From Alphaproteobacteria bacterium (GTDB taxonomy: Bacteria > Pseudomonadota > Alphaproteobacteria > Caulobacterales > Aquidulcibacteraceae), in the NCBI GenBank assembly GCA_027485915.1, contig JAIXQA010000075.1:120431-184430 (forward strand): a DNA stretch of 64,000 nt. The letters run 5' to 3'. Below, in pieces: positions 23,736-31,694 of the stretch. Made by a program: the position numbers and the translations under genes. Position 1 is the stretch's first letter, and every line of letters begins with the position of its first letter. The notes beneath the pieces were generated by a model. It made no database searches. It was not told the DNA's origin and saw only the letters and a program-made list of their open reading frames with translations.

Positions 23736-24404
23736 ATGACCTACGCTAACACCCATTCGAACGCGTCCATCTTGACGGCTTTAGGCGAAGCTGCATTGGC
23801 GCTATGTGCCGAAAAATCATGGGCTGACGTGAGTTTGGTAAGCCTATGCAAAGAGGCAGGACTGAAGCTCGCGGCATGTGCTGAAGCCGGGATCACGCGA
23901 TTTACCATTGCCGAATATCTCGACCAAAGGCTCGATCACGCCATGTTGACCGCTATATCTGACTTGGACGCCGATGCGCCAAGCCGGGATCAGCTGTTTG
24001 ATGTTTTGATGGCACGTTTTGATACGATGGCCGACAATCGGGCGGCATGGGTCTCGATCCTAGCAGCCGATCTCGCAGAGCCTGCCGCAGCCCTTGCCCG
24101 CGCCGCCCGCCGTCTGCGCACGGCAGGATTGGCGTTAGAAGCGGTTGGAATCTCCTCCACGAGCCTTAAATCTAGCGCCCGCGTGGTGGGGCTTGCCCGG
24201 CGCCTACGCAAAATCGAAACGCTTTGGCTGAAGGATGACGCGGACCTGTCAAAGACCATGGCAGGCCTAGATCAGACCTTGCGCGAGAGCGAGGAGTGGC
24301 TCGCACGTGGTGAAAAGCTTGCTGACATTTTAAAGTCTGCGTCGCATCGTTTTACCCGCCCTAAAGCGGCAGCCGCACACTCACCCGAAGACCCCCAAGG
24401 TTAG
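23736..24404 (+). CDS. TetR/COQ9-like regulator
   Basis: 222 aa. Residues 12-60 look like a degenerate TetR helix-turn-helix (ALGEAALALCAEKSWADVSLVSLCKEAGL) whose recognition helix is unusual. RDQLFDVLMARFDTMADNRAAWVSIL matches the COQ9-like C-terminal wording seen in the alphaproteobacterial protein that follows ybjN and proC. It might be a DNA-binding regulator or a lipid-binding COQ9-type protein; I cannot decide. The last 44 bp overlap the end of the convergent histidine kinase gene. Confidence 0.65.
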   Translation: MTYANTHSNASILTALGEAALALCAEKSWADVSLVSLCKEAGLKLAACAEAGITRFTIAEYLDQRLDHAMLTAISDLDADAPSRDQLFDVLMARFDTMADNRAAWVSILAADLAEPAAALARAARRLRTAGLALEAVGISSTSLKSSARVVGLARRLRKIETLWLKDDADLSKTMAGLDQTLRESEEWLARGEKLADILKSASHRFTRPKAAAAHSPEDPQG

Positions 24405-25674
24405 ACCTCGATAGCACGAGACTACCACCATGCGAGCGGGCAGCGTCAGAGGCCAGTGCGAGGCCTAAACCCACACCTTTGCGATTTTGATTGCGGGCAG
24501 GATCAAGCCTCGAGAAGGGCTTCAGCGCCTCTTCATAACTTTCCGGCGCAATACCTGGCCCATCGTCATCGACATAGATATAGACAGCATCCTCGCTCTG
24601 CGACGAACTAAGCACCACCGTCTTCCCAAAGGAGAGGGCATTCTCAACAAGGTTAGAGAGGCAGCGCTTCAAGGCAATTGGGCGGCCTGAGGTAGGCAGA
24701 CTGTCTGCAAGGCCAGAGCCATCAATTTCCCGACCGGCTCGGGCCGCATCTTGGATGACAGCGCGCGCAATTTCCGCAAGGTCTAGGGCTTCAGGCTCTT
24801 CTGACCATTGGCCTTGGGCAAAGGCCAAATATTCTTCCAACATGCCCTCCATCTCAACAATGTCTTTGCGGGCTTCATCGATATCGCTGGAAGGTGGCAT
24901 CATGGCCAATTGCAATTTGAGCCGGGTCAATGGGGTGCGCAAATCATGGCTGACCCCGGCAAGCAAATTTGTGCGCTGTTCAATATGGCGTTGAATGCGA
25001 CCGCGCATCTGAAGGAAGGCTAAAGTCGCGCGGCGCACTTCTGCTGAGCCTGCAGGCTTTAAGCTCACATTTTCCCCGCGTCCAAATCGGTCAGCGGCAT
25101 CAGCCAAGCGCTCCATCGGGCGGACTTGGTTGCGGATGAAGAGGACAGAGACCGTGGCCAAAAGAATGGTCGCCCCAGCCAGCCACAGGATGAAGATACC
25201 GCCGGTGGAGGCAAAAACCCGGTCGCGATAGGCCAGAAAGCGAAGCACACCACCAGGAACCTCCACCCTGATGTCGACATAGTCTGGATAGCGCGTCGTA
25301 TCGAACCAGAATTTTTGCCGCAACGACCCGGAGAGGGCCCGACGCAAGGTCCGGTCAAAAGCAGGGATAACAGCTAAGCGTTCTCGCTCAGGCAATTTGG
25401 CTTGTTTCTGGAGTGCAACCGAAAGGCGTAAGTCGGCCCGCGCATAGCGCGTAATGGCTGCCAAATTTTCCGGCGTTGGATTGTCGGCATAAAGCTGGGT
25501 GACAAGGGCAACATCGCCCGCTGCCCCTTCACTCAAGCGTCGGCTAACCTGTTCCCAATGCAAATCAAAGAATAAATAGGTCACGACCATTTGCATGATC
25601 GCCACCGGTAAGACGATGATAAGGAGCGAGCGGGCAAAGAGGCCGCGCGGGATCAGCGCCTTTAGGTCCATCAT
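24361..25674 (-). CDS. Sensor histidine kinase, EnvZ-like
   Basis: 437 aa. Membrane segment at about residues 13-32, a periplasmic sensor part, a second helix near residue 160-180 (GGIFILWLAGATILLATVSVLFI), and a HAMP (NQVRPMERLADAADRFGRGE). The H-box is AGVSHDLRTPLTRLKLQL and the ATPase has N (LSNLVENALSFGK), G1 (VDDDGPGI) and G2 (GVGLGLALA) boxes, all intact. It follows the OmpR-type response regulator gene by 24 bp and so is its likely partner. EnvZ-like kinases of this form sense envelope or osmotic stress. Signal unknown. Confidence 0.9.
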   Translation of the reverse strand: MMDLKALIPRGLFARSLLIIVLPVAIMQMVVTYLFFDLHWEQVSRRLSEGAAGDVALVTQLYADNPTPENLAAITRYARADLRLSVALQKQAKLPERERLAVIPAFDRTLRRALSGSLRQKFWFDTTRYPDYVDIRVEVPGGVLRFLAYRDRVFASTGGIFILWLAGATILLATVSVLFIRNQVRPMERLADAADRFGRGENVSLKPAGSAEVRRATLAFLQMRGRIQRHIEQRTNLLAGVSHDLRTPLTRLKLQLAMMPPSSDIDEARKDIVEMEGMLEEYLAFAQGQWSEEPEALDLAEIARAVIQDAARAGREIDGSGLADSLPTSGRPIALKRCLSNLVENALSFGKTVVLSSSQSEDAVYIYVDDDGPGIAPESYEEALKPFSRLDPARNQNRKGVGLGLALASDAARSHGGSLVLSRSNLGGLRVSVRLPL

Positions 25675-25698
25675 AAGCGACCTTCCAGCAAATGAGCA

Positions 25699-26394
25699 CT
25701 ACGCATCATGCATCAACCGATAGCCGAGACCGCGCACGGTTTGCAGATAGTGCGGCTCGGCCGGATCATCTTCGAGCTTCCGGCGTAGACGCGTGACTTG
25801 CACATCGATGGATCGCTCCACGGTGACGCCGGCTTTGCGTGCCAATTCTTCGCGGGTGATCGTAGCCCCTGGTCTTGCTGCCAAAGCGGCTAAAAGATCT
25901 TTTTCGGCATCTGTCAGGCGCACTAAAATGCCATCGCGCCGAAGCTCGCCCTTGGTGGTATTCCAAGTCGCCGCGCCCAAAAGCAGTACGTCCGCAGCTG
26001 GGGCAGGCCGGGCACGTTTGAGAATTGCAGCTACACGCAACGCCAGTTCTTCGGGTTCAAACGGTTTACCCAGATAATCATCGGCACCCGCGGTAAGGCC
26101 TTCAATTCGGTGACTGGGGTCGCCTAATGCGGTCAGAAGGATGATCGGCGTATCGCGCTCGCCTCGCACAGAACGCGTAAGCGAGACGCCATCTTCGCCG
26201 GGCATCATCACGTCCAAAATGACCAGATCAAACATCAAAGCATCCATTAATTTGCGGGCGCTCACGGCGTCGTGGGCTTCGGTCACCGAATAACCAAGGC
26301 CGCTGAGGTAACGCTTCAATAGGCTGCGAATGCGATCGTCATCATCAACGACGAGCAAATGGGCTGGATGATCGGCTTGAGCGCGGGGGGGCAT
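25699..26394 (-). CDS. OmpR-family response regulator, PetR-like
   Basis: 231 aa. Receiver with acidic pair DDDD, phospho-acceptor Asp in VILDVMMPGEDG, and K in GKPFEPEEL, then an OmpR winged helix (LTDAEKDLLAALAARPGATITREELARKA, RSIDVQVTRLRRKLEDDPAEPHYLQTVRGLGYRL). The MarR gene immediately upstream ends one base before this start, and the kinase follows. In Rhodobacter capsulatus a MarR-like PetP and an OmpR-like PetR are co-transcribed and required for the bc1 complex; this pair has the same order. The orthology is inference. Confidence 0.9.
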   Translation of the reverse strand: MPPRAQADHPAHLLVVDDDDRIRSLLKRYLSGLGYSVTEAHDAVSARKLMDALMFDLVILDVMMPGEDGVSLTRSVRGERDTPIILLTALGDPSHRIEGLTAGADDYLGKPFEPEELALRVAAILKRARPAPAADVLLLGAATWNTTKGELRRDGILVRLTDAEKDLLAALAARPGATITREELARKAGVTVERSIDVQVTRLRRKLEDDPAEPHYLQTVRGLGYRLMHDA

Positions 26395-29677: not shown

Positions 29678-29758
29678 ATGTATGCCCTTCTTGCTCTCGC
29701 ATTGGCCGTTGGTGCCATGGCATTGTTGAACCTGATTGAGTTCAAGCGTCTCGACTAG
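29678..29758 (+). CDS. 26-aa single-span membrane microprotein
   Basis: Too short for the ORF track. ATG at 29678 with the strong ribosome site AAAGGAGTTTCCATC, TAG at 29756-29758. The product is MYALLALALAVGAMALLN followed by LIEFKRLD: one hydrophobic helix of about 18 residues and a short charged C-terminus. Such a clean Shine-Dalgarno sequence at the right distance, with no overlapping gene, supports translation. Small proteins of this size often bind respiratory complexes or transporters; no function can be named. It sits alone between a divergent Nudix gene and a convergent kinase. Confidence 0.6.
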   Translation: MYALLALALAVGAMALLNLIEFKRLD

Positions 29759-29792: not shown

Positions 29793-31694
29793 TTAGGCAC
29801 TTGAAGCTGAAGGTACTTCGGCAATGGCAGCAGCAATTGAGGCCAAAGCCTCATTGAGTTCTGGTATTGAAATTGGCTTATTTAAAAAGGCATTCATACC
29901 TGCCGCCATGGCCGCTTCGCGTGTTTCCGGCCGCGCGTCTGCTGTCAAAGCGATGATTGGCATGGCAGGGAAATGCTCTGTTTGAATTTCCGCTTCCAGT
30001 TCCCGGATATGGCGCGTCGTCTCATAGCCATCCATGTTGGGCATATGCAGGTCCATCAAAATGGCGTCGAAGCGGGCTTTTTGGATGGTCTCTAGGCACA
30101 TGACACCATCGGCGACGATCACGCAGGAATGGCCCAATTGTTCGAGGATAACTGCGATAATCTTTTGATTGATCAGATTATCCTCAACCACCAATATGCT
30201 GAGTGAACGTGTCGGGTCGATTGCGCCAATTGGTTCGTCGAGATTGCTCGCCACCCGCTCCAGCGGCAGATAAAATTGCACTGCGCCATGCTGCGTCCCT
30301 CGCGTGGCAATTGTGACATCCCCGCCCATGGCCCGCGCCAATTTCCGCGCGAGCGGCAAATCAATACCATTGCTTTGGCTGATGGGATTGTCGGGCGTTT
30401 GAATGCTTGAAAATGGCTCAAACAGGCTGCGTGCTTCATGATTTGAATAGGGCGCGCCCATATCATGCAGAACCATCAGCGCCCCATGACCGTTTTCGCC
30501 AGCACTGAGGCGTAGCCTTATCGTGCCGGGGCCGCTTCGCTCAATGGCATGACGCAAAATAGCCTGCAAGGTTCGCAAAAATAGCTTCTCATCACCGAGA
30601 AAATTGGCTTGAGCCGCGCGGTCAATATCGACTTCTAGAGTGACCTTGCGAGAGTTGGCTCGCCCCCTTAGCGTTTCGCAGGCGGTCAGACACGTTTTTG
30701 CCAGCGGGAAAGAGGTGGTTCGCACATCGATCGTTCCGGACTCAATGCCCGATAGGTCAAGAGCTGAATCCACCAGCGACAAGAGTTGCTCACCTGCCAG
30801 TTCTGAGGCTTCAACCAGGTCGGATAATTCTGGCCTGATTGCTTGCTCTTTCAATAGGCGGGGCAGGGCCATCAGTGCATGAATGGGTGTGCGAAACTCA
30901 TGACTGAGGCCTGATACAAATCGGTTTTTCGCTTCAAGCCCGGCAAGAGCAGTCTTGCGCGCCTCGATCAATTCGCGCTCTTTGAGTTTTTGCTCGCTGA
31001 TGTCGAGGATTGTCCCAGCAAAGCGTAGGACAAGACCGTCGCTATCATGCACACTTGTGCCACTTACTGCGACCCAGCGTACGTCACCGGTTGGACGCAT
31101 GATCCGGAATTGGGCGTTATATGGCGTCCGCTCCCCAAAGGCTTTCGCGCAAGCAGCACGCACCACGGCCCGGTCTTCAGGGTAAATGAGGTCTTCAAAC
31201 ACAGAGATATAGGAGCGCGAATCGGTGTCGTGCAGACCCAGGATTTCCAGACAGGGGGGCGAAAAAAAGTGGGTGTTGGCGACACGATCATGGTCCCATA
31301 CCCCGATTCTGGCATGCCTCAGCGCGAGGGTGTACCGCTCAATCATCGTTTGCGAAGCGGACAAATCTTCGGTGGATTGAAGCGGTGTCTTGAGCATGAT
31401 TTGGACGGCTTGTTGGCCACGAAAATCAATGACGCGCTCTGTCACGTCCGCAAAAAACAGATCTCCATGGAGAGTCGAAAAATAAGCGAAGCGGCGCTCA
31501 GGATCATGTTGGGGCTGGACAAGGGCACCCAATAGAGCCGTTACATTGCGATAATCTGTGAACTCGCGGGTTGAGCCAAATCCGAATGCGGTGGCTGCGG
31601 CTTTGTTCGCATACAGAATTTCTTCACGGCAGCGCACCAAAATGCCGTTTGGTAGGTTGTATAAAATTTCATCAAGGGTACGCAAATAATCCAT
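29793..31694 (-). CDS. PAS-domain hybrid histidine kinase with degenerate ATP-binding domain
   Basis: 633 aa, no membrane helix. PAS 1 near residues 5-105, PAS 2/PAC around 120-235 (RIMRPTGDVRWVAVSGT). The dimerisation helix has SGLSHEFRTPIHALMALPRLL with H265. The C-terminal receiver (SILVVEDNLINQKI, Asp548 in FDAILMDLHMPNMDG, Lys606) is intact. The catalytic domain is not: the N-box reads ILRHAIERS where NLLxNAxK is expected, G1 is DMGAPYS for DxGxGI, and G2 is SNGIDLPLA for GxGLGLA. It may be a phosphatase, a scaffold or a pseudokinase. Upstream DNA (31700-31860) is AT-rich with no site I recognise. Confidence 0.88.
   Translation of the reverse strand: MDYLRTLDEILYNLPNGILVRCREEILYANKAAATAFGFGSTREFTDYRNVTALLGALVQPQHDPERRFAYFSTLHGDLFFADVTERVIDFRGQQAVQIMLKTPLQSTEDLSASQTMIERYTLALRHARIGVWDHDRVANTHFFSPPCLEILGLHDTDSRSYISVFEDLIYPEDRAVVRAACAKAFGERTPYNAQFRIMRPTGDVRWVAVSGTSVHDSDGLVLRFAGTILDISEQKLKERELIEARKTALAGLEAKNRFVSGLSHEFRTPIHALMALPRLLKEQAIRPELSDLVEASELAGEQLLSLVDSALDLSGIESGTIDVRTTSFPLAKTCLTACETLRGRANSRKVTLEVDIDRAAQANFLGDEKLFLRTLQAILRHAIERSGPGTIRLRLSAGENGHGALMVLHDMGAPYSNHEARSLFEPFSSIQTPDNPISQSNGIDLPLARKLARAMGGDVTIATRGTQHGAVQFYLPLERVASNLDEPIGAIDPTRSLSILVVEDNLINQKIIAVILEQLGHSCVIVADGVMCLETIQKARFDAILMDLHMPNMDGYETTRHIRELEAEIQTEHFPAMPIIALTADARPETREAAMAAGMNAFLNKPISIPELNEALASIAAAIAEVPSASSA

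What the first reader, a model, noticed from the sequence alone, without database searches (positions are those of the whole stretch)
30345..30557. Hybrid kinase with a broken ATP-binding domain
H265 and the receiver Asp548 are kept, but the N-box Asn is His, G1 is DMGAPYS, and G2 is SNGIDLPLA. The protein has two PAS domains. It may act as a phosphatase or as a decoy in a phosphorelay rather than a kinase.
Basis: partly seen in the sequence, partly recalled or inferred. Interest (0 to 1): 0.55.

Follow-up and report, generated by a model that had tools for sequence, protein, structure and literature searches.

The report
Conserved kinase-dead hybrid histidine kinase
A freshwater bacterium carries a bacterial "sensor kinase" whose ATP pocket has been lost but whose phosphate-handling parts are intact; eight related species keep exactly the same loss, so it is a selected pseudokinase, probably used to drain or remove phosphate from another signalling protein, much as RetS does in Pseudomonas.

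Summary
The gene (29793-31694, minus, 633 aa) is PAS-PAS_3-HisKA-HATPase_c-REC. H265 and the HExxT phosphatase motif are kept, and so is the whole REC active site, with D548. The N-box (Asn to Ala378 and His382), G1 (second Gly to Pro415) and G2 (Gly to Ser441 and Asp445) are broken.

It is not a local mutation or decay. Eight of nine genomes of the genus (Aquidulcibacter) carry it in synteny, and all eight share every loss. The altered lid/G2 segment is among the most conserved stretches of the protein (pN/pS 0.041, versus 0.050 in an intact paralogue). All 122 non-orthologous hits aligned keep N-box Asn and G1; 120 keep all boxes.

Syntenic kinases next to folM show graded loss: intact in two other genera (G010, G027), partly eroded in genus g13, fully lost in Aquidulcibacter. 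Two relatives have a kinase-free site.

Best explanation: a kinase-dead hybrid sensor working like RetS, as a PAS-controlled phosphatase and/or phosphate sink for a partner kinase or phosphorelay. It is a new, independently evolved variant of a known kind (RetS, PhyT, ChpT, DivL).

The parts
29793..31694 (-). whole gene: PAS-PAS-HisKA-(degenerate)HATPase_c-REC hybrid histidine pseudokinase, 633 aa
   Evidence: orthologues in 8 of 9 genus genomes
31365..31694 (-). N-terminal PAS domain (aa 1-110)
   Evidence: PF00989/PF13188 above cut-off; counterpart PAS in g13 and G010 relatives
31008..31268 (-). second PAS domain, PAS_3 (aa 143-229); not detected in the g13, G010 or G027 relatives
30735..30932 (-). 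HisKA/DHp domain (aa 255-320), intact
   Evidence: pN/pS 0.10
30888..30902 (-). H265-E266-F-R-T269: phospho-acceptor His, H+1 acid and H+4 Thr (HExxT phosphatase motif), invariant in 8 orthologues
   Evidence: role of H+1 and H+4 from PMC8292422 and PMC5992135
30258..30596 (-). HATPase_c/CA domain (aa 367-479), fold kept, ATP boxes lost
   Evidence: 38 bits; AlphaFold model mostly pLDDT 77-95, low in the lid; PDB fold matches ShkA, GacS, RetS, HK853, DivL
30534..30563 (-). broken N-box (aa 378-387, AILRHAIERS; A378 and H382 in place of the two Asn, E385 in place of Lys)
30447..30464 (-). broken G1 box (aa 411-416, DMGAPY; second Gly is Pro415)
   Evidence: same Gly-to-Pro change in RetS DSGHPF
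30348..30425 (-). intact F-box, altered ATP lid and broken G2 (aa 424-449); among the most conserved segments of the protein
29844..30197 (-). receiver domain (aa 500-617), active site intact (E504, D505, D548, T584, K606)
30051..30053 (-). D548 phospho-acceptor codon

Best explanation
A selected, kinase-dead hybrid sensor (histidine pseudokinase). Inferred mechanism: the PAS domains sense a cytoplasmic signal and set the DHp conformation. Because the CA domain cannot hold Mg-ATP, the protein does not autophosphorylate. Instead it lowers phosphorylation of a partner system in trans. Its HExxT motif would act as a transmitter phosphatase on a partner's receiver, and its REC D548 would act as a phosphate sink taking phosphoryl groups from a partner kinase's His or an Hpt protein, as RetS does to GacS. 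Shown here: box loss, its fixation in the genus, retained HExxT and REC chemistry, and graded loss in syntenic relatives. Inferred: absence of ATP binding, direction of phosphate flow, existence and identity of the partner.
For: All three ATP boxes are lost while H265/E266/T269 and E504/D505/D548/T584/K606 are kept in all orthologues where that stretch is complete (L011 ends before K606). DHp pN/pS is 0.10, REC 0.11 and altered lid/G2 0.04, comparable to an intact paralogue's lid at 0.05, so phospho-chemistry and the altered domain are both under selection. The locus is syntenic in the genus, with intact kinases at the folM site in G010 and G027 and partly eroded ones in g13; HATPase_c scores fall from 95 and 81 through 67-80 to 38 bits. 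The Aquidulcibacter stem branch is very long (2.65 changes per column) and followed by short branches. RetS has the same combination (degenerate HATPase lacking G-boxes, HExxT kept, REC sink needed) and acts as phosphatase, sink and inhibitor of autophosphorylation (PMC5992135). RetS is among the top sequence and fold matches and shares the G1 Gly-to-Pro change. Possible partners exist: at least 11 other hybrid kinases, seven Hpt domains, four of them in frames of 126-169 aa, and a ChpT.
Against: No adjacent partner regulator or Hpt gene; the nearest two-component pair (24361-26394) is 3.4 kb away. H+1 Glu is invariant although PMC8292422 states it is not needed for phosphatase action, which hints that H265 may still accept phosphate. 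One of eight orthologues (G001, a MAG) has a stop in REC before K606, so REC may be dispensable there or the base is an error. G006 lacks the gene altogether.
Confidence: 0.52

Rival explanations
1. A phosphotransferase or trans-phosphorylated relay element: H265 is phosphorylated by a partner kinase's CA domain in a heterodimer, or by back-transfer from a receiver, and passes the phosphate on (PhyT/ChpT/Spo0B-like, or ChrS-HrrS-like).
For: H265 and the H+1 Glu are invariant although Glu is reported unnecessary for phosphatase action. PhyT in an alphaproteobacterium has a degenerate ATPase domain and relays phosphate through its His (PMC5898713). A ChrS pseudokinase forms heterodimers with HrrS and promotes cross-phosphorylation (PMC9491836).
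Against: It keeps its own REC next to the His, which makes it more like a sink than ChpT, Spo0B or PhyT; no neighbouring single-domain regulator; no co-varying partner was found (one search gives only a weak lead).
Confidence: 0.25
2. A DivL-like scaffold or phospho-sensor: the transmitter core only binds a partner regulator or kinase and changes its activity allosterically, without phospho-chemistry.
For: The altered lid/G2 surface is among the most constrained parts, as expected for a binding surface; DivL also lacks kinase and phosphatase activity and uses PAS domains (PMC4211667) and is a fold match.
Against: DivL lost its His (Tyr550), whereas here His, HExxT and the full REC active site are invariant. 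The genome already has a DivL-like protein, L247_1 with SYQLRT.
Confidence: 0.13
3. Still an active kinase with a non-canonical ATP site.
For: G1 Asp411 (adenine contact), G413, G443 and the F-box are kept and the Bergerat fold is predicted; relatives in g13 keep N2 and G1.
Against: Both N-box Asn, the N-box Lys, the second G1 Gly and two G2 Gly are gone, and Asp445/Glu385 add negative charge by the phosphates; RetS, which still has N2, is inactive (PMC5992135); DivL binds TNP-ATP at least 19-fold weaker than typical kinases (PMC4211667).
Confidence: 0.08
4. A decaying kinase gene on its way out.
For: G006 lacks the gene; the G001 copy has a premature TAG.
Against: Purifying selection throughout, strongest on the altered lid; eight species with identical losses and intact frames in seven.
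Confidence: 0.02

Closest known systems
RetS (Pseudomonas aeruginosa hybrid sensor)
   Same: Hybrid HK with degenerate HATPase_c lacking G-boxes, kept HExxT motif and phosphorylatable REC; same second Gly to Pro in G1 (DSGHPF vs DMGAPY); among the top sequence and fold matches
   Different: RetS is membrane-bound with a periplasmic sensor and two RECs and keeps N-box N2 (LLDNA); the window protein has two PAS, no membrane domain in its Pfam architecture, one REC, also lost N2, and kept the F-box. Not syntenic or orthologous; independent loss.
PhyT/PhyP (Sphingomonas melonis Fr1)
   Same: Alphaproteobacterial degenerate-ATPase histidine kinase whose His is kept and used for phosphotransfer (PMC5898713)
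   Different: HRxxN-type DHp at the phyR locus, membrane-anchored, no REC described; here a classical HisKA, an orphan locus and a fused REC
ChpT / Spo0B
   Same: Dimeric DHp with ATPase domain no longer used for ATP (cited as precedents in PMC5898713)
   Different: Small phosphotransferases without sensor or receiver; the genome has its own ChpT at C46
DivL (Caulobacter)
   Same: PAS-bearing histidine pseudokinase, poor ATP binding; fold match 4q20
   Different: DivL replaced the His by Tyr and has no REC; here His and REC are intact
Syntenic hybrid kinases next to folM in G010, G027 and genus g13
   Same: Position beside folM(/folB), HisKA-CA-REC order; g13 groups with the window clade (97 bootstrap, 98% of trees) and G010 joins them (97/91)
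   Different: Boxes intact (G010, G027) or only N1 and central G2 Gly lost (g13); one PAS or none detected

Membership tests
HisKA hybrid histidine kinase (architecture) | HisKA with phospho-acceptor His, HATPase_c, fused REC with phospho-acceptor Asp | tested here: met
   Pfam above cut-off for all three; H265, D548
Active histidine kinase | N-box Asn, G1 DxGxG, G2 GxGLG | tested here: not met
Active histidine kinase | ATP binding and autophosphorylation | not testable with these tools
   needs bench assay
RetS-like degenerate-HATPase hybrid (functional analogue) | HATPase_c lacking G-boxes | tested here: met
RetS-like degenerate-HATPase hybrid (functional analogue) | HExxT transmitter-phosphatase motif kept | tested here: met
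   H265-E-F-R-T269 invariant in 8 orthologues
RetS-like degenerate-HATPase hybrid (functional analogue) | REC with intact phosphorylation site | tested here: met
   E504, D505, D548, T584 in all 8; K606 in 7 of 8, the eighth ending before it
RetS (orthologue) | RetS architecture (membrane sensor, two REC) and orthology | tested here: not met
   two PAS, one REC; other syntenic descent
PhyT/PhyP | HRxxN DHp motif, phyR locus | tested here: not met
   HExxT HisKA; neighbours are nudix, folM, folB
DivL | Tyr in place of His, no REC | tested here: not met
   His265 and REC present
Orthology to syntenic folM-side kinases | one clade of window, g13, G010, G027 | tested here: inconclusive
   window+g13 in 98% of bootstrap trees, with G010 97/91; all 13 as one group in 88% of bootstrap trees and not rejected, p-AU 0.43; G027 placement uncertain, long branches

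The most novel reading that the evidence does not exclude
The CA domain was not merely switched off but rebuilt: the invariant replacement of lid and G2 (LFEPFSSIQTPDNPIxQSNG[IV]DLPLARKLARAMGG) forms a new binding site, for another small ligand or for a partner's receiver, so that the former ATP domain is now an input sensor that gates the phosphatase or sink activity of the intact DHp and REC.
Probability: 0.15. Interest if true: 0.65.

Novelty: new variant of a known kind. Interest (0 to 1): 0.43.

Why it matters
Histidine pseudokinases are known from a few cases only (RetS, DivL, PhyT, ChpT/Spo0B, a laboratory-evolved ChrS). Here comparative genomics gives a graded natural series at one locus, intact, half-eroded and lost, ending in a form that then became strongly conserved. 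That makes "what is a dead sensor kinase for?" testable with natural intermediates in the order of Caulobacter, where signalling is well mapped. It also warns that automatic annotation as "hybrid sensor histidine kinase" hides proteins that probably do the reverse.

Tried and rejected
Local mutation, sequencing error or decay: rejected. RetS orthologue: rejected on architecture and synteny. NCBIfam: no equivalog reached its cut-off, so no named system. PADLOC: only weak REC matches to defence models, not meaningful. Association with the neighbouring 26-aa ORF or nudix gene: rejected, since both stay where the kinase is absent in G006 and the small ORF stays in G013. Partner guess from DHp/REC similarity: L004 (C79, 635 aa) is most similar, but seems missing from two genomes that have the pseudokinase, so only a weak lead. 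A first position table mislabelled the N-box residues; corrected.

Full report
OBSERVATION. The gene at 29793-31694 (minus) encodes 633 aa with two PAS domains, HisKA, HATPase_c and a receiver. In detail, the N-box has Ala378 and His382 in place of the two Asn and Glu385 in place of the Lys. G1 is DMGAPY with the second Gly replaced by Pro415. G2 is SNGIDLPLA with only Gly443 of GxGLG left. The F-box is intact.

NOT CHANCE. In a local alignment of 122 non-orthologous histidine kinases recovered by similarity from many phyla, all 122 keep His, N2 and DxGxG, and 120 keep every box; one of the two exceptions, L032, turned out to be a syntenic relative from G020. In the window's own genome, among the kinases whose CA domain could be aligned (about 26), this is the only one with all boxes broken. 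The same census picks out another protein with Tyr for His (SYQLRT), which looks like DivL, a known pseudokinase; that is a useful positive control.

THE GENUS. Eight of nine genomes of the genus have the gene, the other seven at 67-85% identity to the window's. All share A378, H382, P415, S441 and D445. The segment from the F-box through G2 is nearly invariant. Pairwise pN/pS is 0.041 for lid/G2, 0.10 DHp, 0.11 REC, 0.15 the whole CA, 0.20-0.31 PAS. In an intact paralogue from the same eight species lid/G2 is 0.050 and CA 0.12. pS is near saturation (0.56-0.69), so the ratios are only comparative. The altered pocket is thus conserved as strictly as a working one.

THE LOCUS. Gene order from tetR-like to gshA is the same in the genomes compared, as far as each stretch reaches. 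In G006 and in another genus (G013) the 26-aa ORF sits directly beside folM with no kinase. In G010 and G027 a hybrid kinase with intact boxes lies beside folM on the divergent side; in G027 one gene lies between. In genus g13, a PAS-HisKA-CA-REC protein of about 500 aa lies between nudix and folM-folB, or next to folB in the two species where no folM was found there. It has N1 changed to His, N2 and G1 kept and the central G2 Gly lost. HATPase_c scores fall from 95 and 81 (intact) through 67-80 (g13) to 38 bits (window). A search of 398 genomes of the order finds no other close members.

TREE. IQ-TREE on 66 kinases: window plus g13 form one group in 98% of bootstrap trees (97 support, SH-aLRT only 57), G010 joins at 97/91, G027 is unsure. 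All thirteen syntenic kinases as one group is not rejected (p-AU 0.43) and occurs in 88% of bootstrap trees. The stem of the Aquidulcibacter clade is 2.65 changes per column long. Long branches are in play, so orthology rests on synteny plus tree together. The pattern fits a single lineage that lost the ATP boxes stepwise, changed fast on the Aquidulcibacter stem and then became constrained.

STRUCTURE. AlphaFold2 (50-row alignment, mean pLDDT 82) keeps the Bergerat fold, with low confidence in the lid. Foldseek's best PDB matches include ShkA, GacS, RetS, HK853 and DivL; sequence search of the core gives GacS first and RetS next. RetS has DSGHPF in G1, the same Gly-to-Pro loss.

MECHANISM. 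Shown: the ATP boxes are gone; HExxT and the REC active site are kept (in the truncated G001 copy the sequence ends before K606). From the literature: RetS, with a degenerate HATPase domain lacking G-boxes, cannot autophosphorylate; its HExxT Thr gives phosphatase activity on GacS REC and its REC2 Asp takes phosphate from GacS (PMC5992135). H+4 governs phosphatase action and H+1 kinase action (PMC8292422). Inferred: the window protein is a PAS-controlled phosphatase and/or sink for a partner. The invariant H+1 Glu leaves room for trans-phosphorylation of H265 (PhyT-like or ChrS-HrrS-like; PMC5898713, PMC9491836). The genome offers other hybrid kinases, seven Hpt domains and ChpT as possible partners; none is linked by position.

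VERDICT. It is a conserved, independently evolved histidine pseudokinase, a new variant of a known kind, with partner and biochemistry open.

Noticed in passing
window 29678-29758 (+): 26-aa ORF (MYALLALALAVGAMALLNLIEFKRLD) conserved 88-100% in the genus, 85% in G013 and 58% in G055, also where the kinase is absent; likely a small membrane protein that annotation would miss.
   Followed up: partly
L011 (G001), orthologue around aa 593: In-frame TAG in the receiver before K606, in a MAG; either a sequencing error or lineage-specific loss of REC function.
   Followed up: no
L247 (G000:C65, about 40.3-40.9 kb): Histidine kinase-like protein with Tyr in place of the phospho-acceptor His (SYQLRT) and an eroded G2: looks like DivL.
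   Followed up: no
L195 and L197 (genus g13): In G107 and G020 no close folM is found at the syntenic site although folB stays; an apparent local gene loss.
   Followed up: no
window 31008-31268 (-): A second PAS domain (PAS_3) is present in the Aquidulcibacter protein and not detected in any other syntenic relative, so sensor gain may have accompanied the loss of ATP boxes.
   Followed up: partly
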